From Corynebacterium camporealensis (GTDB lineage: Bacteria; Actinomycetota; Actinomycetes; Mycobacteriales; Mycobacteriaceae), in assembly GCF_000980815.1 (NCBI RefSeq), contig NZ_CP011311.1, positions 1,875,815-1,939,814 of the forward strand: DNA of 64,000 nt. The letters are read 5' to 3'. Of the stretch, positions 10,603 through 43,574 are shown piece by piece; within the stretch, counting starts at the first letter, position 1, and each line of letters starts with the position of its first letter. The position numbers and the translations under genes were made by a program. The notes under the pieces were generated by a model. That model made no database searches. It was not told where the DNA came from and was given only the letters and a program-made list of their open reading frames with translations.

Positions 10603-13107
10603 GTGACTTCTACGAACCTCACTCGCGTTGAAGCAGCGCACCGCTCGCAGCTTCTCGATGTCGCCCACTACGACGTCACCCTCAACCTCCACGACGCCGA
10701 ATACTTCGATACCCGCACCGTCGTGGATTTCCAGGTCAAGCAGGCAGGTTCGACCTTTATTGACCTTCGGGCAGACAAGCTTATCGATGCCACCCTCAAC
10801 GACACCGCCCTTCCCACCGATTCTTATGACGCGGAGGCCGGCATCCAGCTGGAGGACCTGGAGCCGGGCGACTACACCCTGGTGGTCAACGCAAAGGTGA
10901 AGTACTCGCGTACCGGTGAAGGCTTGCACCGCTTTGTCGATCCGGCCGATAACCAGCCTTATCTCTACACCCAGTTCGAAACGGCGGATGCCAAGCGTGT
11001 GTTCGCGTGCTTCGACCAGCCGGATTTGAAGGCGACCTACTCGCTGCACTTCGATGCCCCGGCGGACTGGAAGCTCATCACCAACTCGCCCGTCGAGGAG
11101 CGCGACGGGCTGCGACACGCCGAGATTGATGTGCCGCTGTCGACCTACCTGGTGGCGCTGTGCGCGGGCCCGTACCACGAGGTGCGCGATACCTGGCGCG
11201 GTGAGCTGACCGAGCACCCAGAAAACGGCACCGAGGCAGGCCAGCTGGAGGTTCCGCTGGGTCTGTACTGCCGAGCATCGCTTGCCGATGCCCTCGACCA
11301 CCAGCGCCTGTTTACCGAAACCAAACAGGGCTTTGACTTCTACCACCGCAACTTCGGTTTTGCGTACCCGTTTGGCAAGTACGACCAGGTCTTCGTGCCG
11401 GAATTCAACGCCGGTGCGATGGAAAACGCCGGTTGTGTGACCATTCGCGACGAGTACGTGTTTAGCTCCCAGGCCACCCACTACAAGTACGAGCGCCGCG
11501 CCGATACGATCCTCCACGAACTGGCTCACATGTGGTTCGGCGACCTGGTCACTATGGACTGGTGGGACGATCTGTGGCTCAACGAGTCCTTTGCCACCTG
11601 GGCTGCCGCGATCTCGCAGGCGGAGGAAACCGAATACGACACCGCGTGGGTGACCTTCGCCAATGTCGAGAAGGCCTGGGCCTACCAGCAGGATCAGCTG
11701 CCGACCACCCACCCGATTTCCACCGACGCCTCCGATATCGAGACCGTGGAGCAGAACTTCGACGGCATCACCTACGCCAAGGGCGCGTCCGTGTTGAAGC
11801 AGCTGCAGGCCTACGTCGGTCGCGAGAACTTCTTTGCCGGTGTGCGCCGCCACTTCAAGGCACATGCCTGGGGCAATGCGACCTTCGCGGACCTGCTGGG
11901 TCACCTCGAGGAAGCCTCGGGTCGCGACCTGTCCTTCTGGGCACAGCAGTGGCTCAAGACCACCGGTGTCAACACCCTGCGCATCGAAACCGAAGAAGAC
12001 GGCACCATCACCGCCGCGAAGCTGGTTCAGACCGGCGATACTCTGCGCCGTCACCGCCTGGCCGTTGGCGGCTACAGCCTGAGCGGCGACTCCGTGGAAC
12101 GCGTGGAGCACTTCGAGCTCGATATCGAAGGTGCAGAAACGGAGCTGCCGCAGCTGGTTGGCAAGCAGCGCCCGGACTTCCTGCTGCCTAACGATGACGA
12201 CCTGACCTACTGCCTTATCGAACTGGATGAGGCGTCCCGGGACTTTATGGTCGGGCACATCGATAAGTTTGCCGACCCGATGGCACGCACCCTGTGCTGG
12301 TCGACTGCCTGGGAGATGACCCGTGCCGGAAAGATGCGCGCCCGCGACTTCGTCGCGCTGGTCGCTCGCGGTGCGCAGGCCGAAACCGAGCTGGCAGTAC
12401 TCGAGCGCGTGCTGCTGCAGGCACGCAATGCGCAGAGGAACTTTGCTGCGCCGGAGTGGGCATCGCACAGCACTATGCTTGCCGATACCCTACTCCACGG
12501 CGCCCAGAACTCCTCCCCGGAGCGCGCGATTATCTACACCGAAGCACTGGCCAAGTTGCCATTGACCAACGGCACGCGCGACTACCTGCAGTCGGTGTTG
12601 GATACCTCCGATGATGCTGGTCTGCGCTGGTCCGCGGTGGCGGCACTGGCTGCGGATGGGGCGATTGAGGATGTTGAGGAGATCGTCGCTAAGCAGTTGG
12701 ATCTGGATAACTCTGCCACCGGACACCAGTTTGCGCTGCGTGCGAAGGCTGCGGTCAATACTGCGGAGTCGAAGCAGGCGCTGTGGAACGAGCTGGTTGC
12801 AGGTCAGCTGGGCAATCGTGAGATGACCTCGAAGCTGGAGGGCATGGTCTATCCGGGTGCGGATGACTACCTGCCGACGGCCAAGTTCTACGAGGTCGCC
12901 GAAGACATCTGGGGCGCTAAATCCCACGAGGTCGCCTTGACCACGGTGACGGGGCTCTTCCCGTCCTGGGATATCAGCGAAGAAGGCATTGCGCGCGCCG
13001 ATAAGTTCTTAGAGCGCGACCTGCCGGGTGGTCTGCGCCGCACCATCGTCGAGCAGCGCGACCGTGTGGCCCGCGCGCTGCGCAACCAGCAGGTGGATGC
13101 GGGTTAG
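10603..13107 (+). CDS. pepN: Aminopeptidase N, M1 family
   Basis: Zinc metallopeptidase that removes N-terminal residues from peptides in the cytoplasm. The 834-residue protein carries the exopeptidase motif GAMENAG and the zinc site: His305, Glu306, His309 in HELAH and Glu328 in LWLNES. The C-terminal half is the helical ERAP1-like domain. Start is GTG at 10603 with AAAGGAG 5 nt upstream. Its TAG stop overlaps the stop of the convergent gntR gene by four bases. The neighbouring CPFA thiol protein is divergent. Confidence 0.96.
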   Translation: MTSTNLTRVEAAHRSQLLDVAHYDVTLNLHDAEYFDTRTVVDFQVKQAGSTFIDLRADKLIDATLNDTALPTDSYDAEAGIQLEDLEPGDYTLVVNAKVKYSRTGEGLHRFVDPADNQPYLYTQFETADAKRVFACFDQPDLKATYSLHFDAPADWKLITNSPVEERDGLRHAEIDVPLSTYLVALCAGPYHEVRDTWRGELTEHPENGTEAGQLEVPLGLYCRASLADALDHQRLFTETKQGFDFYHRNFGFAYPFGKYDQVFVPEFNAGAMENAGCVTIRDEYVFSSQATHYKYERRADTILHELAHMWFGDLVTMDWWDDLWLNESFATWAAAISQAEETEYDTAWVTFANVEKAWAYQQDQLPTTHPISTDASDIETVEQNFDGITYAKGASVLKQLQAYVGRENFFAGVRRHFKAHAWGNATFADLLGHLEEASGRDLSFWAQQWLKTTGVNTLRIETEEDGTITAAKLVQTGDTLRRHRLAVGGYSLSGDSVERVEHFELDIEGAETELPQLVGKQRPDFLLPNDDDLTYCLIELDEASRDFMVGHIDKFADPMARTLCWSTAWEMTRAGKMRARDFVALVARGAQAETELAVLERVLLQARNAQRNFAAPEWASHSTMLADTLLHGAQNSSPERAIIYTEALAKLPLTNGTRDYLQSVLDTSDDAGLRWSAVAALAADGAIEDVEEIVAKQLDLDNSATGHQFALRAKAAVNTAESKQALWNELVAGQLGNREMTSKLEGMVYPGADDYLPTAKFYEVAEDIWGAKSHEVALTTVTGLFPSWDISEEGIARADKFLERDLPGGLRRTIVEQRDRVARALRNQQVDAG

Positions 13108-13880
13108 TCGAGTTGTGAGGCGGGGTCATCGCCAAGCGTGACCTCCACGTTGGCTGCATCAGAGCGCAAGGTCTCTTCCATGTAGCACATGACCTGCCCC
13201 GTCGACAGCTTCGCGATGCGCTGCAAACGCAACATCGGGTAAGAACGGCTCACGCCTAGCAGGCGCTGTTCTTCTTTGCGGGCGTTGGCAGCGCAGACGG
13301 TCTCGCGCTTAAAGACCGGACGCAGCCCGTAGCTGGCCATGACGTCTGCGAGGGGCTGGTTGAGTTTTTGCTGGTCCAGGTCCGGTGCGAGGTCAACGGG
13401 GATGACCAGGCTGGAAACCAGCAGCGGGTCGTCGCCGTCGCAGACGAGGCGCTTGACCTCCCAAACTGCGGTGCCGTCTTCGACGCCGAGTTTGGCGCCG
13501 ATGTTTTTGAGCACCTCGGCTTTGACGCAGGAGACGAGTTTGATCTCGATGTCCTCACCGCGCTTGTCCAGCTGGCCAATAACACCTTCTGGGCAGGTGA
13601 GGTCGAGAGTCGGTGGGATAGCGCGGACGAACGTGCCACCGGCACGGCCGCGTTTGCGGTCGATGAGCCCTTCAATCTGCAAAATATCGAGAGCTTGGCG
13701 CACCGTCATGCGGGCTACGCCAAATTCTTGTACTAGTTCGCGCTCTGTGGGGAACCGCTCTCCCGGCTTCAGCTTCTGCTCAGCAATCTGGCTGCGCAGC
13801 GAGTCTGCGATGACGAGATAGGCAGGTCGGCGCCTCGAGGGGGTATTCACGAGGCCTGATTCTAACGAATCTGTCTTCAC
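13104..13880 (-). CDS. GntR-family regulator, HutC/FarR (UTRA) subfamily
   Basis: 258 residues: N-terminal winged helix-turn-helix (about residues 19-86, FPTERELVQEFGVARMTVRQ) and a C-terminal UTRA-type effector-binding domain from about residue 105. It is the last gene of the seven-gene operon that begins with the ABC substrate-binding protein, 26 bases after the SDR gene, and is likely a local sensor of the imported or oxidised compound. GTG start at 13880. The stop codon overlaps that of convergent pepN. The effector is unknown; HutC-type members often bind amino acid, sugar or fatty acid metabolites. Confidence 0.9.
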   Translation of the reverse strand: MKTDSLESGLVNTPSRRRPAYLVIADSLRSQIAEQKLKPGERFPTERELVQEFGVARMTVRQALDILQIEGLIDRKRGRAGGTFVRAIPPTLDLTCPEGVIGQLDKRGEDIEIKLVSCVKAEVLKNIGAKLGVEDGTAVWEVKRLVCDGDDPLLVSSLVIPVDLAPDLDQQKLNQPLADVMASYGLRPVFKRETVCAANARKEEQRLLGVSRSYPMLRLQRIAKLSTGQVMCYMEETLRSDAANVEVTLGDDPASQLD

Positions 13881-13906
13881 AAATACAGCCCTGGCATAAC
13901 AATTAC

Positions 13907-14578
13907 TTATTTCACCCGTTGGTTTAGCTCAATACGGGGTCGCACTTGCACGTCTGTGAGCTGCGTCGTTGCGCCTGTATCGACCACAAAGCGAATCGCG
14001 CGGGCAACTTCTGCGGGGGCAATAACATGTGCCGGATTGTAGTCCTGCAGGCCTTGCAGCATCGGTGTATCGGTCGGCCCCGGGGCTACCGTGGAGACGC
14101 GAATGTCCTGCTCAGCTAGGCGAAGGCCGTCGGCAAGCGCGTAGAGGGCATGTTTGCTGGCTGCATAGACAACATTGTCGCCGTAGCTGGTACGCCCTGC
14201 TCCTGAATTGATAAAGACAACTATTCCGCCTGCAGCGCGTAATTTTGGCAGCAAAACCCTGGTCAGCTCCGCCGGCGCGTGGACATTTAAGTCCATGTGG
14301 GCGCGCCAATCCTCCACGCTGGCGGAGTCGACGGAGAACTTCTCCGCAACGGCTGCGGCGTGGACAAGCACGTCGACGCGGTCGAGTTCGGGAAGCTCAA
14401 TGCCCTCATCCAGCCCGGCGCGCAGGTCGCCCGGTACGGGTGTGACGTTGTCGAGGCCCTCCAGCTCCGCGGCGCGACGTCCCAGCGCGTAGACGTGGTG
14501 GTCGCGCGCCAGGCCGTCGATGATTTCCCGGCCCATTCCGCCGGTTGCTCCAGTTACTACTGCAATCTTGTCGCTCAT
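13907..14578 (-). CDS. Short-chain dehydrogenase/reductase
   Basis: NAD(P)-dependent oxidoreductase, 223 residues. The nucleotide-binding motif is TGATGGMG near residue 9, the catalytic Ser lies in FINSGAG and the YxxxK pair in YAASK. It starts 9 bases after the stop of the CMD/AhpD gene and precedes gntR, so it belongs to the same operon. It probably reduces or oxidises an intermediate derived from the imported substrate; that is inferred from position only. Confidence 0.88.
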   Translation of the reverse strand: MSDKIAVVTGATGGMGREIIDGLARDHHVYALGRRAAELEGLDNVTPVPGDLRAGLDEGIELPELDRVDVLVHAAAVAEKFSVDSASVEDWRAHMDLNVHAPAELTRVLLPKLRAAGGIVVFINSGAGRTSYGDNVVYAASKHALYALADGLRLAEQDIRVSTVAPGPTDTPMLQGLQDYNPAHVIAPAEVARAIRFVVDTGATTQLTDVQVRPRIELNQRVK

Positions 14579-14587
14579 AGCCCCAGG

Positions 14588-15769
14588 CTAACGAAAACGG
14601 CGCGGCACATCCGGTGCGCCGAGAGTCAGCATGAGGCGGTTTGCCCAGTTGAAGAAGGATGCGGAGTTAATCACGTCGATAATCGCAAGCTCGTTCAGGC
14701 CGACGTTGCGCAACTCCTCGACGTTCGTTTTATCAAATCGAACTGGCGTTGCGGTGAGGTCCAGGGCGGCATCGCGCAGGGCGTTCCAGGAGGTGGTGCC
14801 GAGGTCGGCTGTGGGGCCATCGGCAAGCAGCTTATCGATGGCCTCCGCATCCCCACCCTCTTCCTTCGCGCGGGCCTGGTGGACCGAGGCACAGTACTCG
14901 CAGCCGTTGTAGCGGGAGGTGACGGTGGCAGAAAGCTCGCGTTCGGCACGGCCGAGGCCGCCGTCGGTGTTGTAGAAGATATCCAGGTCGGTGCGAGTGC
15001 GCGCCAGCAGAGCGGCTGGGTCACGGGCGAGCAGGCGGAAATACGGCATATCGATGCGCTCCGGCTTGATGAGTGAGTCTTTTTGCGCCTCGGTCATCTC
15101 GTCTTTGGGTACGGCGGGTACCCAGGGGCGCCAGCCGAGTGGATGGGCGACGAAGCCTTGGGGTGCGACGACATCGGGAAGCTCAGTGCGCGGGCCAGGC
15201 TGCCAGTTGGGGTTGGATTCTTTAGCTTCGCAGGCCTCCGGGGTCGCGATCTCGGCGCCGCCGAGGACGTTGAGTCCGTGGATGACGCGCAGCTGGAAAG
15301 CCAGGAAGGAAATCAGCTGGGCCAAGCTCACGATGTCATCATCCGACCAGCCGGCCTCCTGCAAATGACCAATCGCGCCCGGGGTGGCGTCCTTCGGGTG
15401 GAAAATCAGCAGGTGCGCAAAGTCGAAGGCTGCGGCGAGGCGCTCACCGTAATCCAGGACGCTGAAGGTGACGAACTTGCCGTCGTGGTAGGGGCCGGCG
15501 ATGCGGCCGCGGGTGATGGCGGGTTGAAGGTTGAGGGAGGAGTCATCGGAAAGCAGTTCTGCGTAGAACTCATAGGCGCGGGTGTCCTGGGTGATGCCAG
15601 CGATGAAAGCGGCGACGGCGTAGCGCTCGGTGTAGGTAAACGTGCCGGGGTTCTCAGGTTCGAGCAGTGCGCTAAACGATGCCTGCGCATTCTCCTGCGC
15701 ATCCGCCCTCCGCGCGCGCAGGTCAAGGATGTCCTGTGGTGCGGTGGAGAGGTGATTGATGATGTCCAT
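14588..15769 (-). CDS. Two-domain CMD/alkylhydroperoxidase (AhpD-like) protein
   Basis: 393 residues. The C-terminal half (about 220-393) is an AhpD/carboxymuconolactone decarboxylase domain with redox pair Cys290-Glu-Tyr-Cys293 and His297, the peroxidase-type motif. The N-terminal half is a second, divergent CMD-like helical domain without Cys pair. As I recall, such halves exist as separate families (Avi_7170 and Avi_7169 types) that occur with a peptide-type ABC transporter and flavin monooxygenases in other bacteria; here they seem fused. GAAAGGAAATC precedes the ATG. It lies between the transporter ATPase and the SDR. Likely role: peroxide or organic peroxide handling linked to oxidative breakdown of the imported compound (inference). 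Confidence 0.8.
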   Translation of the reverse strand: MDIINHLSTAPQDILDLRARRADAQENAQASFSALLEPENPGTFTYTERYAVAAFIAGITQDTRAYEFYAELLSDDSSLNLQPAITRGRIAGPYHDGKFVTFSVLDYGERLAAAFDFAHLLIFHPKDATPGAIGHLQEAGWSDDDIVSLAQLISFLAFQLRVIHGLNVLGGAEIATPEACEAKESNPNWQPGPRTELPDVVAPQGFVAHPLGWRPWVPAVPKDEMTEAQKDSLIKPERIDMPYFRLLARDPAALLARTRTDLDIFYNTDGGLGRAERELSATVTSRYNGCEYCASVHQARAKEEGGDAEAIDKLLADGPTADLGTTSWNALRDAALDLTATPVRFDKTNVEELRNVGLNELAIIDVINSASFFNWANRLMLTLGAPDVPRRFR

Positions 15770-15800
15770 GATTTCCTTTCAGTTGGCTTTGGGGCTTTGA

Positions 15801-17396
15801 CTAAAGGCCCAGATTGAGGTCGCCGCCGCGGTAGCGGGAGCCGGGGATGGCGGTGATGAGTTGCTGGGTAAAAGGTGATTGGGGGTTGCTGAAGACGTCG
15901 CGGGTGGGGCCGTATTCGACTTGGTTGCCGTGGGATAACACAGAAACGGTATCGGCGATTTGGTTGACCACGGCGAGGTCGTGGGAGATGAAGATATAGG
16001 TTAAGTCGAGTTCGCGTTGGAGGTCGTCGAGCAGGCGGAGGATTTGGGCCTGAACGGTGACATCCAGGGCGGAGACGGCCTCGTCGAGGACGACGAGTTC
16101 GGGTTCCACGATCATCGCGCGCGCGATGGCGACGCGTTGGCGTTGGCCACCAGACAACTCGCGGGGGCGGCGGTCGTAGTAGTCGGGGTCGAGTGCGACG
16201 AGTTCGAGGAATTCCTTGGCCTTGGAACGGGCAGTGGCTTTGTTGGCGCCGCGCAGGTTGCGCAGGGGTTCAGCGATGGTGTCGCCGATGCTGCGCCGCG
16301 GGTCCAGCGAGCTATAGGGGTTTTGGTAGACCAGCTGGATGTTGGCGCGTTCATCGCGAAGCTTGGCGCCGCGCAAACCGACGACGTCGCGGCCGCCGAC
16401 GCGGATGCTGCCCTCGGTGGGGTTATTAAACAGCGCGACGCTGCGGCCGGTGGTGGTCTTGCCGGAGCCGGACTCCCCTACCAATGCGTGCGTAGTGCCC
16501 TTGGCCACCGTGAAGGAGATGTCGTTGACGGCGGTGAAATCGCCGTAGCGCTGGGTGAGGTTGTCGACCTCCACGAGGGTCTCGGCGTTGCGATGCCGGC
16601 GGGGTGGGATGGTGCTGAGTGAGGGGGCATCGGCAAGCAGGCGCTGCGTGTAGGCGTCCTTGGGGTTGACCAGGACGTTGGCTGCCAGGCCGGATTCGCG
16701 GACCTCGCCGGCTTCCATGACGACGATGTGGTCGGCGCGGTCACCTGCCACAGCCAGGTCGTGGGTGATAAACAGCAAGCCGATGTTGTTTTCGGCGCGC
16801 ATCTCATCAAGCAGATCGAGGATGATTTTCTGGACCGTGACGTCGAGGGCGGAGGTGGGCTCATCGGCGATGATGAGGTCCGGCTCGAGTGCCACGGTGG
16901 CGGCGATGAGCACGCGCTGTTTCATGCCGCCGGAGAGCTCGTGCGGGTACTGGGCGTAGCGGCGCTCCGGGTCGTCGATGCCGACGCGGTCGAGCAGCTC
17001 GATGGCGCGCTGGCGGCGGGACTCGGGCGTGCCGACGTGATGGATGGCCAGGCCTTCTTCGACAGAGGCGCCGATGGTTTTTAGCGGGTTAAGCGAGTTG
17101 TTGGGGTCCTGCGGAATCAGGCCGATGCGCTTGCCGCGCAGCTGGCGCCACTTGGCGTTGTCGAAAGCAGTGACGTCCTGGCCTTCGAAGTGGAGGGTGC
17201 CGGCGTCGATGGTGGCGTTGTCCGGCAGCAGGCCAATCGCGGCCATGGCGGAGGTGGACTTGCCGGAGCCGGACTCGCCGACAATCGCGGTCACCTGGCC
17301 AGGTTGAACCTGCAGGCTCACCCCGCGCACGGCGGCGACGGAGCGGTTGCCGGAGTGGTAGGACACGCTGAGATCATTGATGTCGAGCAAAGACAT
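15801..17396 (-). CDS. ABC transporter ATPase, fused DppD-DppF type
   Basis: 531 residues with two complete nucleotide-binding domains of the oligopeptide/nickel importer type. The first has Walker A GESGSGKST, signature LSGGMKQR and Walker B LIIADEPTSALD; the second has GESGSGKTT, LSGGQRQR and LVVLDEAVSALD (Glu followed by Ala instead of Pro). The fusion replaces separate DppD and DppF subunits. It starts directly after the DppC-like permease stop (adjacent bases), indicating translational coupling. It powers import by the permease pair at 17397-19207. Confidence 0.94.
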   Translation of the reverse strand: MSLLDINDLSVSYHSGNRSVAAVRGVSLQVQPGQVTAIVGESGSGKSTSAMAAIGLLPDNATIDAGTLHFEGQDVTAFDNAKWRQLRGKRIGLIPQDPNNSLNPLKTIGASVEEGLAIHHVGTPESRRQRAIELLDRVGIDDPERRYAQYPHELSGGMKQRVLIAATVALEPDLIIADEPTSALDVTVQKIILDLLDEMRAENNIGLLFITHDLAVAGDRADHIVVMEAGEVRESGLAANVLVNPKDAYTQRLLADAPSLSTIPPRRHRNAETLVEVDNLTQRYGDFTAVNDISFTVAKGTTHALVGESGSGKTTTGRSVALFNNPTEGSIRVGGRDVVGLRGAKLRDERANIQLVYQNPYSSLDPRRSIGDTIAEPLRNLRGANKATARSKAKEFLELVALDPDYYDRRPRELSGGQRQRVAIARAMIVEPELVVLDEAVSALDVTVQAQILRLLDDLQRELDLTYIFISHDLAVVNQIADTVSVLSHGNQVEYGPTRDVFSNPQSPFTQQLITAIPGSRYRGGDLNLGL

Positions 17397-18236
17397 TTAA
17401 GCCTCCACCTTCAGGTTCTGGGACAAGCGGTTGGCGGACATGACGACGGCGACAATCGCCAGGCCAGGCAGAATGATGAGCCACCAGGCGGTGGTCATGA
17501 AGTCGCGGCCTTCGGCGATGATCAGGCCCCATTCCGGCGTGGGCGGCGGGGCGCCGTAGCCGAGGAAGCCGAGGATGGACAGCTGCAGGATGGCAGAACC
17601 GAACTGCAGGGTGGCCAGGGCGATGACCGGGGTCAGTGAGTTGGGCAGGATGTGGCGAAAAAGCACCTGCATGCGGGTGGAGCCGGCACCGTAGGCGGCT
17701 TCGACGAAATCGGCGTTGGCAACGGTGATGACCTGGGAGCGGGCCAGGCGCGCGAAGGTAGCCACGGAGGTGGCGCCCACGGCGACGGCGGCCTGCAGAG
17801 AACCGAAGCCCAGCACGATGATGATGGACAGCGACAGGAGGATGCCGGGGATGGACAGCAGCACATCGACGATGCGCATGACGATGGTTTCTACCCACCC
17901 GCGCAGCGCACCCGCGAGCAGGCCAAGCAGCGTGCCGACGAGCAGGCCCACTGCGACGGCGACGACAGCGCCGAGTAGGGACTGGCGCGCACCGTAGACG
18001 ATGCGGGCATAGAGGTCGCGGCCGACGGAGTCGGTGCCCATGAGGTGGCCATCGCCAGGCGGGAGCAGGGCGACGTCGGTGCCGGCATAAGGGTCGGCGG
18101 AGGTAAACAGCGACGGGAAGAGTGCCGCGGTAAAAGCGATGACCAGCACGATGATGGAGATGATCGACCCCGGCGCAGTCCAGGGGTTGGTGCGCTGGCG
18201 CTTGCGCGGCTTGTTCAAGACGTTGGCGGTGGTCAT
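17397..18236 (-). CDS. ABC transporter permease, DppC type
   Basis: 279 residues, with an N-terminal cytoplasmic segment, one membrane helix near residue 24, then five helices forming the BPD transport domain. The EAA loop lies at DFVEAAYGAGSTRMQVLFRHILPN. It overlaps the upstream permease gene by four bases and abuts the ATPase gene. Together with the DppB-type subunit it forms the membrane channel of a peptide/nickel-class importer. Confidence 0.93.
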   Translation of the reverse strand: MTTANVLNKPRKRQRTNPWTAPGSIISIIVLVIAFTAALFPSLFTSADPYAGTDVALLPPGDGHLMGTDSVGRDLYARIVYGARQSLLGAVVAVAVGLLVGTLLGLLAGALRGWVETIVMRIVDVLLSIPGILLSLSIIIVLGFGSLQAAVAVGATSVATFARLARSQVITVANADFVEAAYGAGSTRMQVLFRHILPNSLTPVIALATLQFGSAILQLSILGFLGYGAPPPTPEWGLIIAEGRDFMTTAWWLIILPGLAIVAVVMSANRLSQNLKVEA

Positions 18237-19207
18237 GCCTTCACCTTCTTGTCTGCCTTGTCGGCGTTCTCGGTGTTGGTGGCGCGCAGGCGCACGTCCA
18301 GGACTGGGTAGAGCAGGTCCACGATGAGGTTGATGATGACGTAGGCGGTCGCGGCGATGAGCACGACGGCCAGCAGGACTGGGGTATCGCGGTTGGCGAC
18401 GGCCTGGGCGGTCATCTGGCCCAGACCGGTGCGGCCGAAGACGGTTTCGGTGACCACGGCGCCGCCGACGAGTTCGCCGAAGAGCAGGCCGACCATGGTC
18501 AGCACCGGCAACAGGGAGTTGCGTAGGACGTTCTTCCAGAAGATCCAGGTCTCGCTCGCACCGCGGGCGCGGACCGCCTGGACGAAGGGCTGGGATTGGG
18601 TTTCTTCCAGCGAGCGGTTGAGCACCTGGGTCAGCGGGGCGGTCATCGGTACGGCGAGTGTGAGTGTTGGAAGCAGCAGGCCCTCGATGGTGCCGGGTTC
18701 GATGACGCGGACCCAGCCGAGCTGGAAGGAGAAGAACTGGATGAGCAGGATGCCGATCCAGAAACCCGGCAGGGAGACCAGGAAGGACGGCAGCGAGCGG
18801 GCGAAGGTGCCAATCGCGCCGGAGCCCGGCAGGGTGGCCAGGAAGGCCAGCAGCAGTGCGACGATGATCGCTAGGCCTATCGCGCAGGCGGCCAGGGCCA
18901 GGGTGTGCGGGAGGGCATCGGCAATCAGCTGGGCGACAGGCGCGCCGGTTTGGGTCGAGTTGCCGAAGTTACCGGTCAAAAAGCCGACCAATGAGGTGAA
19001 GTACTGGACCACCAGGGGTTGGTCCACGCCCATGTCTTCGCGGATGGCGTCGATTTCGGCTTGGGACAGGCCGAGGGAGGGGTCGCCGTAGCGGGACTGG
19101 ACGGCATCGGAAGGCAGTGCGGACAGCAGCAAAAAGGCCACGGTGTAGGTCACCAGCAGCACGATGACTGCCTGGCCAATGCGAGAGAGAATCTGTTTCT
19201 TAGTCAT
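18233..19207 (-). CDS. ABC transporter permease, DppB type
   Basis: 324 residues, six predicted membrane helices, with the DppB N-terminal helix and EAA loop at FVQAVRARGASETWIFWKNVLRNS. The ATG immediately follows the stop of the substrate-binding protein gene. Ends in a lysine-rich tail (ADKADKKVKA). Part of the seven-gene operon. Confidence 0.93.
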   Translation of the reverse strand: MTKKQILSRIGQAVIVLLVTYTVAFLLLSALPSDAVQSRYGDPSLGLSQAEIDAIREDMGVDQPLVVQYFTSLVGFLTGNFGNSTQTGAPVAQLIADALPHTLALAACAIGLAIIVALLLAFLATLPGSGAIGTFARSLPSFLVSLPGFWIGILLIQFFSFQLGWVRVIEPGTIEGLLLPTLTLAVPMTAPLTQVLNRSLEETQSQPFVQAVRARGASETWIFWKNVLRNSLLPVLTMVGLLFGELVGGAVVTETVFGRTGLGQMTAQAVANRDTPVLLAVVLIAATAYVIINLIVDLLYPVLDVRLRATNTENADKADKKVKA

Positions 19208-20833
19208 TTAAGCGCCCCCGTTATCGCGGTCGATGGATACGCCGTAGAAGGACGGGCGGGCTACGGCCTCAGGCTGGAAACCCTCGACGGATTCCGCCAC
19301 GGCGTAGACCTGGGGTTCTTCAAACAGCGGCAGAACGTAGGCCTTTTCGGTGAGGTAGTCCTGGACTTCCTCGACGGCGGCTTCGCGGCCGGCATCGTCG
19401 GCGGTGTCGGTGACTTTCTCCAGCAGGTCCTGCAGGTGCGCATCAATCGGGTTGCCCTCAGAGTCCTGGTTGAGGAAGGCGTCGCGGTTGTTCAGCCCGT
19501 AGTAGGAGGTAATAGCATCGTAGTCGGCGCGGGCGACCATGGAGTGGTACATCTGCACCTTCTCCACGTCCTTGGCATCAGCGTTCTGGGTGGCCTGGTC
19601 GCCGGCGTTGACCTGGATGTCGATGCCGATGCGGTGCAGCTGGTCCTGGACCATGGTCATGACCTCGGCGGAACGGGGCTGCGGCAGTGCGATGTTGGTG
19701 CGCAGGACGAGGCGATCGCCGTCTTTGGTGCGGATGCCGTCGGGGCCGGGGGTCCAGCCGGCATCGTCAAGCAGGCGCTCGGACTGCTCCGGGTCGAAGC
19801 TGTAGGCAGCGGACTGGTCCTTGTAGCCCAGGCCGGTGGCGGCAACAGGGGCGGTGGCCAGCGGGTAGGACTCGGAGAAGAGCACGCGGAGGATTTCCTC
19901 GCGGTCGATGCCATGGATAATCGCCTCGCGCACGCGCTGGTCCTGCAGCCGCGGGTGGTCGAAGCGGAAGGCGAGCTGATTGTTCATGGAGTTGGTGCCA
20001 TGCGTGACGATGCCCACCCCCTGCTCCTGCAGCAACGGCTCCTGCGGCGCAGAAATCTGGCGCGCAATATCGGCCTGGCCCGACACGATGGCGCCGGTGC
20101 GAACGGATTCTTCCGGGGCGAGGATGTAGTGCACACCGTCGATGTCGGCGCGGCCCTGCTTCTCCATTGCTGGTGGGGCCCAGTCGTAGTCCTCGCGGGC
20201 GAACAGGCGCAGGTCGGTGCCGATTTCTTCGGATTCAATGACAAACGGGCCGGAGCCAATAACTTCGGTGGCATTGCCGGGGCCGAAGCCTTCGTTGTCG
20301 AGGGCTAAGGAGGCATCGGAAAGCAAGCCAGCGTTAAAGCTTGCGGTGGCCTGCAGAAAGCCCGGGGACGGGGCGGAGAAATGGAAACGGACGGTGTCGT
20401 CGTCGATGACTTCGCCGCGCTCGTAGTTGGCAATCTGCTCCGAGGCGGTCAGGGTGCGTTCCTCATCGCCGAGGCCGTAGAGGTCGAAGTTGGCCACGAC
20501 GTTCTCGGCCGTTAGCGGCGAGCCATCCGAATAGGTGACATCGGTGCGGATGTTGAAGGTGTATTCGGTGGCGTCGTCGTTGATTTCGGGCAGCTCGGTG
20601 GCAATCCAGGGCGAAAGCTCCAGGGTCTCCGGGTCCTGGTAGAGCAGGCGGTCGGTGATCTGGTTGACCACGCCGCCGTTGGGATAAAAACCGGCTGCCG
20701 GCGGGTAGAGGGTGCGGAAGAACTGCGGCTCGAGATAGGTGAGGACGTTTTCCTCCCCGTCTGCCCGCACCGCAGCCGAGCAGCCAGCCAATAAGCTGGC
20801 GGCGGCAACGACACTGACGAGTATGCGCTTCAC
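19208..20833 (-). CDS. Substrate-binding lipoprotein of a peptide/nickel-class ABC importer
   Basis: 541 residues of SBP_bac_5 type. The signal peptide ends in the lipobox LLAGC, so the mature protein is anchored at Cys18. It is the first gene of the operon. As I recall, it resembles the KPN_01854-type binding proteins that travel with CMD/AhpD proteins, which fits the neighbours. The ligand is unknown: the presence of a McbR operator 80 bp upstream suggests a sulfur compound. A possible -10 box TATCTA lies at 20872-20867 on the minus strand. Confidence 0.9.
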   Translation of the reverse strand: MKRILVSVVAAASLLAGCSAAVRADGEENVLTYLEPQFFRTLYPPAAGFYPNGGVVNQITDRLLYQDPETLELSPWIATELPEINDDATEYTFNIRTDVTYSDGSPLTAENVVANFDLYGLGDEERTLTASEQIANYERGEVIDDDTVRFHFSAPSPGFLQATASFNAGLLSDASLALDNEGFGPGNATEVIGSGPFVIESEEIGTDLRLFAREDYDWAPPAMEKQGRADIDGVHYILAPEESVRTGAIVSGQADIARQISAPQEPLLQEQGVGIVTHGTNSMNNQLAFRFDHPRLQDQRVREAIIHGIDREEILRVLFSESYPLATAPVAATGLGYKDQSAAYSFDPEQSERLLDDAGWTPGPDGIRTKDGDRLVLRTNIALPQPRSAEVMTMVQDQLHRIGIDIQVNAGDQATQNADAKDVEKVQMYHSMVARADYDAITSYYGLNNRDAFLNQDSEGNPIDAHLQDLLEKVTDTADDAGREAAVEEVQDYLTEKAYVLPLFEEPQVYAVAESVEGFQPEAVARPSFYGVSIDRDNGGA

Positions 20834-20913
20834 GTCTCGCTCTTTTCAGTAGGTGAGGAATAGGTTTAGATACGTGAATTTAACACATCCCGAACCAGGC
20901 GTTATAGTTAGAC

Positions 20914-20929
20914 TAGACAAAGAAGTCTA
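20914..20929. promoter_or_regulatory. McbR operator (TAGAC-N6-GTCTA)
   Basis: Perfect match to the operator of McbR, the master repressor of sulfur amino acid metabolism in Corynebacterium glutamicum. It lies between the divergent binding-protein and flavoprotein genes, just downstream of a candidate -10 box TATAGT (20903-20908) for the flavoprotein gene, where binding would block initiation. An extra TAGAC half-site precedes it at 20909-20913. Confidence 0.85.
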
Positions 20930-20976
20930 GTACTAGAGTGTTTTCTAGCCTCATCTGCGTTTTAAGGAAGAATAAA

Positions 20977-22848
20977 TTGTCTGCTATTGCCATCGTTGGC
21001 GCGGGTCCGCGCGGGGTATCACTCATTGAGCGCATCGCCGCGCACCTGCCTGCTGATAACGCGGCGTTGGATATTCACCTCGTCGACGATGCCCAGCACG
21101 GCGCGGGCCGAATCTGGGAAACGGACCAGACGCGCACGCTGTGCATGAACACGCTCGCCGGTGCGGTCACGCTGTTTACCGAGCCGGAGTCCACCATGAC
21201 CGCGCCGGTGTTGGAGGGCCCGACGCAGTACGAGTGGATTCAGCTACTGCGCGGTGAGGAAGATGGCATTAAGCCAGAAAAGGTCGCAACCTACCGTGCA
21301 CATCCGGCAGATCCGGCAGTCGCGGAGGCGTTCGCGGAGGAACTGAAGGCGTCGAAGCCGGAGTCGAATCCGTCGCGTGCGCTCTACGGCGCATACATCG
21401 AGTGGTTCATGGAAGTCGCACTGGCGCAGCTGCCGGAGAACGTGACGGTGCATCAGCACCACAGCCGCGCGGTGGGTGTGCACGAGCGCGGCGACCACGA
21501 CGTTATTGAGCTGGCTGATGGGACTGAAGTGCGCGCGGATGCGACGGTGCTGGCCTATGGCTGGCAGGTCCCGGGTCTGACCGAAAGCGAGGAGCACATC
21601 GCTGAGGCAGGCCTGCACTGGGTGCGCCCGGATAATCCGGTGGAGCAACCGCTTGCCGATGTCCCCGCCGACCAGGAAGTCCTCGTCCGTGGCTTGGGCA
21701 TGGGCTTCTTTGACGTCATGGCGCTGGTGACCGCGGGCCGCGGTGGACGCTTCGTGGAAGACGACTCCCCTGCCGGGCTGCATTACGAGGCTTCAGGCAA
21801 GGAACCGCGCTTGGTCGTGGCGTCGGGGCGCGGGTATCCGTTTATTCCGAAATCGGAGTACCACTCGCTGCCGCCAAAGGCGAAGCTGGTGCGCTTCAAC
21901 GCGGCGTTGGGTCAGCTTGGCGATGAAGTCGACTTCGGCGTCGACCTGTTGCCGGCGATTCTGCGAGATGCGTACGCGGAATACTACGAAACCCAAGCGC
22001 GCGTGGAGCCAGAGGCGCTGCAAGTTCCCCTCGAGAAAATCGTCGAGCGCATTGACGAGACGGTGGTCGACGGGGCGGACCTGAAGACGATGGCTAACCA
22101 GCTGCGCGACGCGTTGGAAGACGTGTCGACAGAACCGCTGGATTTGGCGCATTGGTCGGATCCGTTGGCAGATTTCGATGGTGAAGGATCGGAGGAGCTC
22201 ACTGCGTTTATTGCTAAGGGCTTGGCACGCGATATTCGGGAGGCTGTCGCGGCGCAGGATTCCCCGTTGAAGTCGGCGCTGTGGGCGGTGGCGTCCTCGC
22301 GCAAGCAGTCCTCGATTGCAGGTTCGGAAGGTCGGATGACCTGGGAGTCCCGGCAGGGTGCGTACCGGCAGTTGATGGCCTTTGGTCAGATGGTTGGTTC
22401 TGGTCCGCCGCTGTTCCGCACGCGACAGTTGCTGGCGCTCATCGAAGCGGGTCTGGTCCGCTTCGTGGGTGGGCGGCCGCGGTTGGGCATCGGAAAGCAG
22501 TTTGAGCTCCGCGGTAGTGCAGGCGAGGCGAGCTCGGACTGGCTGGTGGATGCGTGGATGCATCAGCCGGATATTCGGCGTGCGGCGGACCCGCTGGCGG
22601 TCTCGATTGCAGATCGCGTGCGGTCGTTTGTCGACCACGGCAACGCCACGGGTTCGCCGGAGACTACCTGGGAGAGGTTGGTTGTCCGGGGTGATGGGGA
22701 CATCGATAAGCGTTTGCACATCGTGGGCATCCCGACGTACGCGCAATGGCCGGATACGACGATTTCGCCGATGCCGGGCACAGACCCGCTGATGCTGCAG
22801 GAAACCGACCGGACGGCAGGCTCCCTGGTGCGGATCGCGCTGGGTTAA
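20977..22848 (+). CDS. FAD/NAD(P)-binding flavoprotein (FAD_NAD_binding_9 type)
   Basis: 623 residues starting MSAIAIVGAGPRGVSLIERI, a dinucleotide-binding Rossmann motif (GAGPRG) with the family's downstream ATG-like strand. Sequence resembles the HI0933/ornithine-monooxygenase-like group filed under FAD_NAD_binding_9; the reaction is not known. I place the start at the TTG at 20977 with AAGGAAG 6-7 nt upstream; an in-frame GTG at 20938 would put the McbR site too near and adds residues unlike the family. It is divergent from the transporter operon and shares its control region, so it may supply the oxygenase or oxidase step for the imported substrate. Its TAA overlaps the stop of convergent metB by four bases. 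Confidence 0.82.
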   Translation: MSAIAIVGAGPRGVSLIERIAAHLPADNAALDIHLVDDAQHGAGRIWETDQTRTLCMNTLAGAVTLFTEPESTMTAPVLEGPTQYEWIQLLRGEEDGIKPEKVATYRAHPADPAVAEAFAEELKASKPESNPSRALYGAYIEWFMEVALAQLPENVTVHQHHSRAVGVHERGDHDVIELADGTEVRADATVLAYGWQVPGLTESEEHIAEAGLHWVRPDNPVEQPLADVPADQEVLVRGLGMGFFDVMALVTAGRGGRFVEDDSPAGLHYEASGKEPRLVVASGRGYPFIPKSEYHSLPPKAKLVRFNAALGQLGDEVDFGVDLLPAILRDAYAEYYETQARVEPEALQVPLEKIVERIDETVVDGADLKTMANQLRDALEDVSTEPLDLAHWSDPLADFDGEGSEELTAFIAKGLARDIREAVAAQDSPLKSALWAVASSRKQSSIAGSEGRMTWESRQGAYRQLMAFGQMVGSGPPLFRTRQLLALIEAGLVRFVGGRPRLGIGKQFELRGSAGEASSDWLVDAWMHQPDIRRAADPLAVSIADRVRSFVDHGNATGSPETTWERLVVRGDGDIDKRLHIVGIPTYAQWPDTTISPMPGTDPLMLQETDRTAGSLVRIALG

Positions 22849-23993
22849 AGGGCGGCGAAGGCCTGCTCTAAGTCGGCGAGCAGGTCTTCGATGTCTTCGA
22901 TGCCGACGGAGAGGCGCACCAGGTCAGCGCCGGGCAGGAGTGCGGAACCTTCGGCGGATAGGTGCGTCATTTTGCGAGGGTGCTCGATGAGCGATTCGAC
23001 GCCGCCGAGGGATTCTGCCAGGCAGATAAGCCGGGTGTTTTTGCAGATTTGCTCGGCGTGGGCGGGATCGTGGAAGCGGATGGATAACATGCCGCCGAAA
23101 CCGCTCATTTGTTGCTTTGCGATGTCGTGGCCTGGGTGGGTCGGCAGACCTGGGTAGAGGACTTCGCTGACCTCCGGGCGGGTGGTGAGGTACTCCGCGA
23201 CGGCTTGAGCGTTCTGGCAGTGGCGATCCATGCGCAGGCCTAAGGTTTTGATGCCGCGGGCGGTGAGGTAGGCATCGAAAGGCGAAGAAACTGCGCCGAC
23301 GTTGCCCTGGAAGTAGAGCAGGCGTTCGTCCATGTGTGCATCGTTGGTGACCACTGCCCCGCCGAGGACATCGGAATGCCCGCCGAGGTACTTAGTGGTC
23401 GAGTGCAGGACATGGTCGGCGCCCAAGGCGAGCGGGTTTTGCAGGTAGGGGGTGGCAAAGGTGTTGTCGACGAGAATCTGGGCGTTACCTTTGTGGGCGG
23501 CAACCTCGGCGATGTCGGTGATGGTGGTCGCGGGGTTGGTGGGGGTTTCTAGCCAGATGAGCTTGGTGTTCTCGCGCAGGGCATCTTCGACTGCCTGCGG
23601 GTTGGAGGTGTCAACGATGGTGAGTTCTACTCCCCAATCGCCGTAGTCGTTGTGAAGCAGGCGGAACATGCCGCCGTAGGCGTCGGAGCCCAAAATGATG
23701 TGGGCGCCGGGGCGCAAGAGGATGCGCAGGACGGTGTCGACGGCAGCCATGCCGGAGGAAAAGACGCGGGCGTAATTGGCGTCTTCTAAGGCGGCGAGGG
23801 TGTTTTCTAGTGCTCGCACCGTGGGGTTAGCCACGCGGCCGTATTCGAAGCCGCCGCGCAACTGTGCCAGGCCGTCCTGGGCGAAGGTGGTGGAGGCGTA
23901 AATCGGCACGTTGATGGAGCCCATGTGGGAATCTGGCTGGTAGCCAGCATGGATGGAACGGGAGGAAAATCCTGTGACACGCTTCTCACTCAT
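22845..23993 (-). CDS. metB: Cystathionine gamma-synthase
   Basis: PLP enzyme of the transsulfuration route: joins O-acylhomoserine and cysteine to cystathionine for methionine synthesis. 382 residues. The PLP lysine lies in HSTTKYLGGHSD, and the upstream Tyr/Arg phosphate-binding pair in FEYGRVANPT. The family could also contain cystathionine gamma-lyase or O-acetylhomoserine sulfhydrylase, but length and sequence favour MetB. GAGG is close before the ATG and TACACT ends 8 nt before it, overlapping a McbR-like site (24006-24021). Position next to a McbR-controlled cluster fits a sulfur locus. Confidence 0.93.
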   Translation of the reverse strand: MSEKRVTGFSSRSIHAGYQPDSHMGSINVPIYASTTFAQDGLAQLRGGFEYGRVANPTVRALENTLAALEDANYARVFSSGMAAVDTVLRILLRPGAHIILGSDAYGGMFRLLHNDYGDWGVELTIVDTSNPQAVEDALRENTKLIWLETPTNPATTITDIAEVAAHKGNAQILVDNTFATPYLQNPLALGADHVLHSTTKYLGGHSDVLGGAVVTNDAHMDERLLYFQGNVGAVSSPFDAYLTARGIKTLGLRMDRHCQNAQAVAEYLTTRPEVSEVLYPGLPTHPGHDIAKQQMSGFGGMLSIRFHDPAHAEQICKNTRLICLAESLGGVESLIEHPRKMTHLSAEGSALLPGADLVRLSVGIEDIEDLLADLEQAFAAL

Positions 23994-34661: not shown

Positions 34662-37600
34662 TTAAGCATCTTTACGACGCTTCGTCACCAGCAACAAACC
34701 AGCTGCAATACTCAGCAGCGCTGCCAGGGCAAGCCACAGCACGTTGGCACCAGTTTCAGCCAGGATGCCTCCCGACGAGGAATCCTGTGCATCCGAACCA
34801 GCAGACGGTGCGTCAGAAGCACCACCGCCCTGCTGCGGGCTGCCGCCAGACTCACCCGGCGCGACCGGTGCGGGGCTTACCGGCGCATCGCTTTCCGATG
34901 CCTCCGGCTCATCACCCGGCACCACACCCGACGTCTCAGTCGGTTCAGTCGACTCAGATGGCTGCGTCGGCTCCTCAGACTCCGACGGCTCGGTCGGCTC
35001 AACCGGAACACTCGGCTCCGTAGTTTCACTCGGCTCCGTCGTCTCGGTCGGTTCCGTTGGCTCACTCGGATCCGTGGTCGGCGGGACGATCGGCTCCTCT
35101 GGTTCGTCGGTAACGAAGCCGAAGTCAATGCCTTCTGCAACCTCATCGGATTCCAGAGTGATCTCGTACTCGAGAGCCTGAGTGCTGACAGGACCGTCCG
35201 GATCTGCGGACTGTCCGTCGAAGCCATCCGGGAACTCCACGACCACGCGGTAGGTACCTGGTTCCAGGTCGCCGACGCTGTACTGGCCGAACTCGTCGGT
35301 AGTCAGCGTGGCAACGACCTCACCATCTTCGTTGTAGACGGTCACCGTGACACCTGCGATTCCTGGCTCCATAGTCTTATCGCCATCGCGGTTGGTGTCG
35401 TGGAAAATCACTCCAGACAAACCAGCAGGCGGAATGACTACAGGTTCTGGCTCGGCATAACCGAAGTCCAGGCCGTCGAATTCGTCGCCGGCTTCAACCT
35501 CGATCAACTGCTCATTGCTCAAGCCATCACTTGGGTCGTAGTCAGAGACCAGCACCAAGTCTTCCGGTCCGTCTACAACGACCACACGATACTGACCAGG
35601 CTCAACATCCTCGAAGAGGTAGCCACCATCAGTGCCAGTGGTGACGCGCTGCACTTCGGTGCCGTTGTCGTCGACAAGCGCAACCACAACACCAGACAGG
35701 CGCTGCTCACCGTCATCGATGGTGCCGTCGCGATTATCGTCGCGCCAGATGGTACCGGAGATCGTCGCATCCTCGACCTCAGGTTCCGTCGTTGGTTCCG
35801 TCGGCTCCTCTGGCTCGCTGGATTCCTCGGTGGAAGTCGGTTCGGTAGGCTCTTCTGGCTCCGAAGGTTCCGTGGACTCCTCAGTAGTCGACGGTTCAGT
35901 CGGTTCTTCAGAAGGCTCGCTCGGATCCGTTGGCGGGACTGGCGGGTCCTCGGTCTCGCTTGGCTCTTCTGCAACCTCGCGGAAGCCGAAGTCCTGTCCC
36001 TCCTGAGTCTCACCGGACTCGATCGTCACAGTTACCTCGCGCGATGGGTTATCGGTTCCACTGACCGGGTCGGAAGTCTGCTCGAACTCACCCTCCGGGT
36101 TACCGATGCGCAGCGTGTACTCGCCTTGCGGGATGCCGTTGAACGAGTATTCGCCGTCTTCATTGGTCGTGGTTTCAGCGACAACATCACCTGCAGCATC
36201 GACCAGCTGCACGGTCACGCCGCTAAAGCGCTCAGACTCATCGGCGTCGATGGTGCCGTCGGAGTTATCGTCCTGCCACAGGGTGCCGGTGACTCCGCCG
36301 ACACCGTAGACAATTGCGTCGACGTTCTCAGCATTCTGACCTGCAGCCACGGTCACAGACGCCCGGACTGTGGTCTCGCCGTCTTCTCCACTGAAGTCGT
36401 TCAGACCGGACTCAGTGACGTCGTCGCTACCAGTTGTTGGCGAGAGTCGGAAGCCGCTCGGCAGGTCGAACTCAACCTGGTAGTCACCAGCGAGCTGGCC
36501 ACCGAAGGAGTAATTTCCTTCGGCGTCAGTGCGGGTGGTGATGGCGTTGCCAGTTTCGTCGGTGACGGGTTCACCTTCGGCGTCGAGCAGGCGCACTACG
36601 ACGCCTTCGACTCCGATCGTGGTTTCACCATCGGTGATGCGGCCGTCGCGCTCAGACTCAGCGATGATGCGACCGGAAATGCCACCCAGCTGGTGAACCA
36701 CTGCATCAACGTTCTCGACGGTGGAACCAGTGGTCACCTCGAACTCTGCGGTGGTCAGGAATTCTGGGTCGACATCGTTAAGCAGTCCTCCACTGATGTT
36801 GTCCGCATCGCCAGCCTGCGCGGATGGATGGTATCCCTCCGGCGGCGTGATGCGAACCGTGTAGCCAGCAACGGCTGGGACATCGGTGAACTCGTAGGCA
36901 CCGTTTTCATCCGTCATGGTCTCAGCGACGACATTGTCTTCACTGTCGAGCAGCTCAACCTTGACGTCTTCCAAGGTTGGAGCGTCTGCTTCAACCTGAC
37001 CATCGCGATCCGATTCGACGTAGACGGTACCGCTGACTGCACCGACGCCGTAGACAATTGCGTCGATGTTCTCGGCAGTCTCGTTGGGGCTTACCGTCAC
37101 GGTAGCGCGGTAGTTGTTCGCTCCTTCTGCAGCAGCGAAATCGTTTAGATTCGGCTCGGTGACGTTGTCTTCGTCTCCGGTAGTCGGCGAGGAACGGTAG
37201 CCATCCGGCATGGTGAACTCAACCTGGTAGTCACCAGCCAGCTGACCGGCAAAAGCGTAATTACCGTTCTCGTCGGTAGTTGTGGTGACAGGGTTGCCCT
37301 CATCATCCGTGACAGGGTTGCCGGCCGCGTCGAGCAGGCTCACCTCGATATTGGCTACGCCGGAGATAGCTTCGTCATCTTCGATGATGCCGTCGCGCTC
37401 GGACTCAGCGATGATGCGGCCCGACAGGCCACCAAGCTGGTGCACGACTGCGTCGACGTTCTCGACGATAGCGCCGGTAGTCACCTCGAAGGCAGGCGTG
37501 GTGCCGTTGTTCGGCGCCACGTCGTTGAGTCCTTCAGCGGTGATGTCGTCGGCATCTCCAGCCTGTGCGGACAGGTGGTAGCCCTCCGGCGTCGTGATGC

Positions 37601-43331: not shown

Positions 43332-43574
43332 ATTTACGCCCACAATCCCCTCTTCACGGCTGCCGTCTGCCGCCGCACGAAAGGTAGACCAATCAGGGCT
43401 TTACATTTTATAGACAACAGCTAAAAATATACAGATACCCTTAATGGAACCTTATAGCTTTCAGTAAAAATACAATAATAGTTCAGTGATTATTAATGTT
43501 CGCCGCACCTAAAACCTACGTAGAGACATGCCTGCAGGTCAGGCCTACACTGGATACTGAATTAAGGAGAAGTC
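43332..43574. other. AT-rich intergenic region with divergent promoters
   Basis: No gene is seen. Bases 43400-43500 are much more AT-rich than the surroundings, with several TATA-like stretches that would serve the surface protein gene on the minus strand. TACACT at about 43549 plus ATTAAGGAGAAG serve the plus-strand gene at 43575. A small GCCTG/CAGGC repeat lies at about 43529. Confidence 0.5.

What the first reader, a model, noticed from the sequence alone, without database searches (positions are those of the whole stretch)
13104..22848. McbR-linked import and oxidation cluster of unknown substrate
Seven tightly packed minus-strand genes (binding protein, two permeases, fused ATPase, two-domain CMD/AhpD protein, SDR, GntR) and a divergent flavoprotein share a control region with a perfect McbR site, and metB follows directly. 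Import, flavin redox, thiol peroxidase-like and SDR steps together suggest uptake and oxidative breakdown of an organosulfur compound, with the GntR protein as local sensor. I cannot name the substrate.
Basis: partly seen in the sequence, partly recalled or inferred. Interest (0 to 1): 0.72.

Follow-up and report, generated by a model that had tools for sequence, protein, structure and literature searches.

The report
Sulfur-scavenging operon with swapped oxygenase
A Corynebacterium gene cluster probably imports and oxidises a sulfur-containing molecule when sulfur is scarce, and compared with relatives in other bacteria it seems to have exchanged its oxygen-adding enzyme for an unrelated one from a family so far known for oxidising aspartate.

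The parts
20914..20929 (.). McbR operator TAGAC-N6-GTCTA between the two divergent units
   Evidence: the consensus searched is recalled from work on C. glutamicum McbR
20880..20908 (+). promoter-like TTAACA-17-TATAGT for the flavoprotein, directly before the operator
   Evidence: 1 found, mean 0.1 in shuffles
20977..22848 (+). flavoprotein (PF13454), FzmM-fold class B monooxygenase relative; proposed replacement oxygenase
19208..20833 (-). substrate-binding lipoprotein, TIGR04028 (823 bits, cut-off 468.5)
18233..19207 (-). Dpp/Opp/Nik-type permease B
17397..18236 (-). Dpp/Opp/Nik-type permease C
15801..17396 (-). fused double ATPase of the importer
   Evidence: two ABC_tran stretches
14588..15769 (-). 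fused TIGR04029 (CMD) + TIGR04030 (AhpD) protein; redox motif NGCEYCASVH in the second half only
13907..14578 (-). SDR oxidoreductase (NF006073 over cut-off); accessory
13104..13880 (-). GntR/UTRA (HutC-type) regulator; accessory, role untested
22845..23993 (-). metB, convergent neighbour, not part of the operon
   Evidence: NF005871 over cut-off

Best explanation
This is the corynebacterial form of a widespread organosulfur-salvage operon. Shown here: the genes, the conserved McbR palindrome, the exclusive distribution of two oxygenase types and the fold of the flavoprotein. Inferred: McbR represses both units when sulfur is plentiful (regulation was shown in C. glutamicum, not here). On sulfur limitation the TIGR04028 binding protein and its Dpp-like importer take up a peptide-sized sulfur compound, most likely an S-substituted cysteine or a peptide or N-acyl form of one. 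The divergent FAD/NADPH flavoprotein puts oxygen on it (probably on sulfur, possibly on the amine), doing the job that an FMN luciferase-type enzyme does in other phyla. The CxxCxxxH half of the CMD/AhpD protein reduces the resulting sulfenate or disulfide to a thiol, the SDR handles a carbonyl by-product, and the released sulfur enters cysteine/methionine metabolism. The switch from LLM enzyme to flavoprotein happened once, in the line leading to the corynebacterial clusters.
Against: No substrate, activity or growth data. 22 genomes of the typed list have the flavoprotein without CMD; in 18 of the 20 looked at no SBP hit lies beside it, and 6 of the loci have an SDR next to it, so it also serves without this importer. 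In G107 and G017 the transporter lies between two flavoproteins with no CMD hit (L201, L202), and G089 has CMD without flavoprotein. Corynebacteria have other LLM enzymes that could act in trans. The perfect site is missing in 11 of 24 intergenic regions, among them the C. glyciniphilum group. 10 of 17 annotated records show no plain sulfur neighbour; the Cmo-like sets are seen only in Pantoea, not in three Erwinia records.
Confidence: 0.6

Rival explanations
1. Plain peptide or methionine-peptide importer under sulfur control; flavoprotein and CMD protect against oxidative stress and do not act on the import.
For: Importer resembles Dpp/Opp/Gsi systems and the ATPase is over the cut-off of the dipeptide ATPase subfamily NF008453; AhpD motif; called a putative peptide transporter in PMC2807442 (table passage).
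Against: SBP and permeases are below the cut-offs of the Dpp, Opp and Gsi models listed while TIGR04028 is far over its own; an oxygenase and CMD travel with the importer across phyla.
Confidence: 0.15
2. Sulfonate or sulfone salvage: the flavoprotein releases sulfite like SsuD/SfnG.
For: Neighbours tauA, sulfonate SBP, and TauD beside a flavoprotein homologue; FzmM binds sulfate in the substrate site (PMC10404684 section 8).
Against: Importer type differs from SsuABC, of which the genome has a separate relative (below cut-offs); the AhpD thiol step fits thiol or sulfenate products better (inference).
Confidence: 0.15
3. N-oxidation route: the flavoprotein hydroxylates the amine of an imported sulfur amino acid, as FzmM does with aspartate, and sulfur is lost by elimination.
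For: Closest solved relative is an N-hydroxylase.
Against: Residues aligned with aspartate-binding Arg276, Asn413, Arg416, Arg577 differ; the swap with LLM enzymes, several of which act on C-S bonds (PMC10863075; that those named there are LLM enzymes is recalled), favours sulfur as target.
Confidence: 0.1
4. Nickel or metallophore uptake (NikABCDE/Cnt type).
For: ATPase is over the NikD, NikE and CntD cut-offs.
Against: SBP 120.9 bits against a NikA cut-off of 393, permeases below NikB/NikC cut-offs; McbR, not a nickel regulator.
Confidence: 0.03

Closest known systems
TIGR04027-TIGR04030 operon (Avi_7169/7170, KPN_01854/01858 families; function unknown)
   Same: SBP and both CMD/AhpD domains over cut-off; two permeases and a fused ATPase in the same order
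   Different: No LLM monooxygenase TIGR04027; a divergent PF13454 flavoprotein stands in; SDR and GntR added; McbR site
C. glutamicum cg2678-cg2674 (McbR/CysR regulon)
   Same: Same gene kinds and regulator as named in PMC2580772 and PMC2807442 (passages)
   Different: The passages seen do not mention the flavoprotein and assign no function beyond putative peptide transport
L-aspartate N-hydroxylase FzmM (8cp2/8cp5)
   Same: Full-length fold; Arg13, Trp51, Asn62 equivalents kept
   Different: Residues aligned with 276, 413, 416, 577 differ; sulfur-linked genomic setting
CmoO/CmoJ S-alkylcysteine salvage (PMC10863075)
   Same: Proposed logic: oxygenate sulfur, cleave, reduce sulfenic acid; Cmo-like gene sets lie near the operon in 3 of 4 Pantoea records
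   Different: No acetyltransferase, deacetylase or LLM enzyme in this cluster

Membership tests
TIGR04027-04030 operon | TIGR04028 binding protein | tested here: met
   823 bits, cut-off 468.5
TIGR04027-04030 operon | TIGR04029 CMD and TIGR04030 AhpD domains | tested here: met
   201.5 (cut-off 100.75) and 287.4 (cut-off 233.15) bits, fused
TIGR04027-04030 operon | TIGR04027 LLM monooxygenase | tested here: not met
   0 of 121 Corynebacterium genomes over cut-off; own best 70.3 bits against 412.9
McbR regulon | TAGAC-N6-GTCTA operator, conserved | tested here: met
McbR regulon | De-repression in an mcbR mutant | not testable with these tools
   reported for C. glutamicum genes only
FzmM-type aspartate N-hydroxylase | Fold | tested here: met
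FzmM-type aspartate N-hydroxylase | Aspartate-binding Arg13, Arg276, Asn413, Arg416, Arg577 | tested here: not met
   read by eye off the HMMER alignment: R, S, K, S, M; the column of Arg276 follows a gap and is less sure
FzmM-type aspartate N-hydroxylase | Trp51 and Asn62 at the flavin | tested here: met
   W47 and N58 invariant in 20 sequences
FzmM-type aspartate N-hydroxylase | Aspartate hydroxylation | not testable with these tools
   needs an enzyme assay
CmoO/CmoJ pathway | LLM sulfoxidase and C-S monooxygenase in the locus | tested here: not met
   no LLM in the cluster; a TIGR03860 LLM lies at another McbR site of the genome
NikA nickel-binding protein | TIGR02294 score | tested here: not met
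   120.9 bits, cut-off 393
AhpD-type redox protein | CxxCxxxH motif | tested here: met
   NGCxYCASVH in 27 of 29 rows; in L073 the AhpD half is a separate gene and L064 is masked

The most novel reading that the evidence does not exclude
Corynebacteria displaced, once, the FMN luciferase-type oxygenase of a cross-phylum organosulfur-salvage operon with a single-component FAD/NADPH enzyme of the aspartate N-hydroxylase fold. That fold thus contains a whole branch of sulfur-scavenging oxygenases, paired with cysteine-based thiol enzymes (CMD/AhpD or OsmC) and served by different importers.
Probability: 0.5. Interest if true: 0.68.

Novelty: new variant of a known kind. Interest (0 to 1): 0.52.

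Why it matters
The TIGR04028-04030 system is spread over at least two phyla yet has no assigned function. The swap of oxygenases points to the core chemical step and gives two unrelated enzymes to assay for the same reaction, in a genetically easy host (C. glutamicum). If right, it gives a function to a whole operon family and adds sulfur oxygenation to an enzyme fold known for nitrogen oxidation.

Tried and rejected
Literature: the family names gave one paper, which holds KPN_01858 once and by its title concerns iron limitation (listing only, not opened); searches gave no function for these genes in what I saw of them (listings). The library is open-access only, so this shows no more than absence there. 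The locus tags searched for the C. glutamicum flavoprotein (cg2679-cg2681, NCgl2353-2355) were guesses and listed no bacterial paper. Nickel and glutathione transport were rejected on cut-offs, aspartate hydroxylation on active-site residues. TIGR04029 hits in other Actinomycetota were weak: 1 of 296 genomes over cut-off, the window's own, so that survey gave no LLM-type loci. Most of the 80 loci (L081-L136) are distant binding proteins (33% identity or less) and were left out of all counts. Flavoprotein homologues were found in 26 of 151 genomes of the family, 6 of them Corynebacterium; 12 loci of other genera were read with my query set: genus g4 shows LLM, TauD or rhodanese neighbours (L250-L252), the other nine no clear sulfur neighbour. 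The trees use no mixture model; the flavoprotein tree is a quick one with long branches, used only for the paralogue clade, whose members were picked by best hit. In the CMD alignment some frames were too long; residues were re-read. The second structure job was not used.

Full report
Observation. The gene list, order and strands in the finding are right. The seven minus-strand genes are spaced by -4 to 31 bases and look like one transcript. The binding protein scores 823 bits against TIGR04028 (cut-off 468.5), the CMD protein 201.5 against TIGR04029 and 287.4 against TIGR04030, both over cut-off. The flavoprotein has no NCBIfam match and one Pfam match, PF13454. Its start is most likely TTG 20977. 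The palindrome TAGACAAAGAAGTCTA lies at 20914-20929, right behind a promoter-like pair of hexamers, where a repressor would block the flavoprotein promoter.

Is the operator more than chance? The genome has 7 perfect copies, the reversed control 3, so genome-wide counts alone would not convince. In relatives the site recurs perfectly in 13 of 24 intergenic regions between binding protein and flavoprotein and within one mismatch in 15 of 24; random 200-base pieces of the same loci give 0.75% and 1.2%. Still, the perfect sites show five different spacers, six with the window's, so the half-sites are what is kept. The C. glyciniphilum group lacks the site.

What is already known. PMC2580772 (passage seen) lists cg2678-74 among McbR-regulon genes less transcribed in a cysR mutant; PMC2807442 (table passage) names cg2674 a putative carboxymuconolactone decarboxylase and cg2675, cg2677 and cg2678 parts of a putative peptide transporter, and marks them and metB McbR*; PMC6892785 (table passage) lists cg2678 with an M-value of 4.99 under total starvation. 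The link to sulfur control is therefore known; the function is not.

The same system elsewhere. Annotated plasmid records show TIGR04028 binding protein, permeases, fused ATPase, 'putative FMN-dependent luciferase-like monooxygenase' and CMD/AhpD (separate or fused) in one row in Allorhizobium, Sinorhizobium, Rhizobium, Roseateles, Pantoea, Erwinia and Agrobacterium (in some genes of the row are not listed). The Pantoea dispersa LLM is TIGR04027 at 544.4 bits, cut-off 412.9; I did not score the others. Paracoccus, Variovorax and Terrarubrum have at least the LLM-CMD-AhpD part. Of the 17 records with annotation 7 have sulfur-type neighbours: tauA and LLM enzymes (and its near copy 103), a sulfonate binding protein, a CysB-type regulator and an annotated sulfurtransferase, and in 3 of 4 Pantoea records an LLM, an amidohydrolase, a MsnO8-type LLM and a GNAT gene near the operon, the nearest of them within about 4 kb (not 52). 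In P. dispersa the first three are TIGR03860, TIGR01891 and TIGR03558. This set resembles the CmoO/CmoJ S-alkylcysteine pathway (PMC10863075, part 1 of 3 read), in which the substrate is acetylated, sulfur oxidised, the C-S bond cleaved, the sulfenic acid reduced and the acetyl group removed; that CmoO and CmoJ fall in those LLM families is my inference. The other 10 records, three Erwinia among them, show no plain sulfur neighbour. In Nesterenkonia a cystathionine gamma-synthase and NtaA/DmoA-type LLM genes flank a distant form of the transporter.

The swap. In one search, 19 of 19 corynebacterial loci (one labelled only Mycobacteriaceae) have the flavoprotein divergent from the binding protein and no LLM hit; 14 of 14 other loci (Agrococcus, Clavibacter, Nesterenkonia, Nonomuraea, Proteobacteria) have an LLM hit and no flavoprotein, the three Nesterenkonia ones only at 29-30% identity. 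TIGR04027 is over cut-off in 0 of 121 Corynebacterium genomes, best 179.6 bits; TIGR04029 is over cut-off in 54 of 121 and found in 56. In 53 of those 56 the flavoprotein is within 12 kb and on the opposite strand; one of the 53 (G049) is only a remnant beside CMD with no transporter hit. The other three: G075 (contig split), G008 (CMD apart from transporter and flavoprotein), G089 (no flavoprotein). The binding-protein tree, rooted on Nesterenkonia, has the flavoprotein loci as one clade (97/96; 98% of 200 bootstrap trees) inside LLM loci, next to Agrococcus and Clavibacter. One replacement is the simplest reading; the root depends on distant sequences.

A second copy. The genome has a 46% identical paralogue at 300075-302033, beside a perfect McbR site at 302088; nearby an OsmC gene and an SsuABC/NrtABC-like importer (below the curated cut-offs) diverge from another site at 297363. 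Such paralogues, picked by best hit, form one clade (100). In 6 of 6 fetched loci of other genomes an OsmC gene lies in the neighbourhood (L194, L199, L205-L208): within 1.3 kb in five, about 7 kb off in L208; the importer is seen in two of the six (L207, L208). So one oxygenase family goes with two different cysteine-type thiol proteins and at least two importers. This is the main ground for reading the flavoprotein as the oxygenating step and CMD/OsmC as the thiol step. In another genus of the family (g4) flavoprotein homologues lie by LLM, TauD or rhodanese genes.

Against. 22 genomes of the typed list have the flavoprotein without CMD. I looked at 20 of them: 18 have no SBP hit beside it, and in six loci an SDR lies next to it (L185, L187, L189, L193, L195, L196), so it is not tied to this importer. 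L190 has a weak CMD hit (37%) on the far side of a McbR site. G107 and G017 have the transporter between two flavoproteins and no CMD hit. Nothing here shows a substrate; the S-substituted cysteine proposal rests on neighbours in Pantoea and on the importer type. I give sulfur salvage as such about 0.85, displacement of the LLM about 0.6, S-substituted cysteine as substrate about 0.35.

Verdict. A real, conserved, partly known sulfur-regulated cluster. The new element is the exchange of oxygenases and the placement of an FzmM-fold family in sulfur scavenging.

Noticed in passing
L054:6748-12163 (genome 296747-302162): Second McbR-marked cluster: OsmC, SsuABC/NrtABC-like importer and a 46% identical flavoprotein paralogue.
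   Followed up: partly
L053:7574-12551 (genome 7574-12551): At two other McbR sites: NtaA/DmoA-type LLM, SsuD-like LLM, SfnB-like enzyme and a ROK regulator, a likely sulfonate/sulfone set.
   Followed up: partly
window 34662-43343 (-): 2893-aa repetitive surface protein with a C-terminal LAETG sorting-type signal; two near-identical one-mismatch McbR-like matches inside it (36307, 37051) look like repeat copies.
   Followed up: no
L201:13403, L202:5309, L075:9801: Loci without a perfect McbR site carry another palindrome around ACAGATCTGT in the same intergenic region, perhaps a different regulator's site.
   Followed up: no
L209:8271-9511: Decayed locus in G049: CMD gene beside a 42-45-residue flavoprotein remnant, no transporter hit.
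   Followed up: no
P0125, P0143, P0208, P0218: Public records name this flavoprotein 'exopolyphosphatase', most likely a misannotation.
   Followed up: no
L254:2230-2880, L257:2123-2773: Erwinia records annotate a Qnr family pentapeptide repeat protein and a site-specific integrase upstream of the operon.
   Followed up: no
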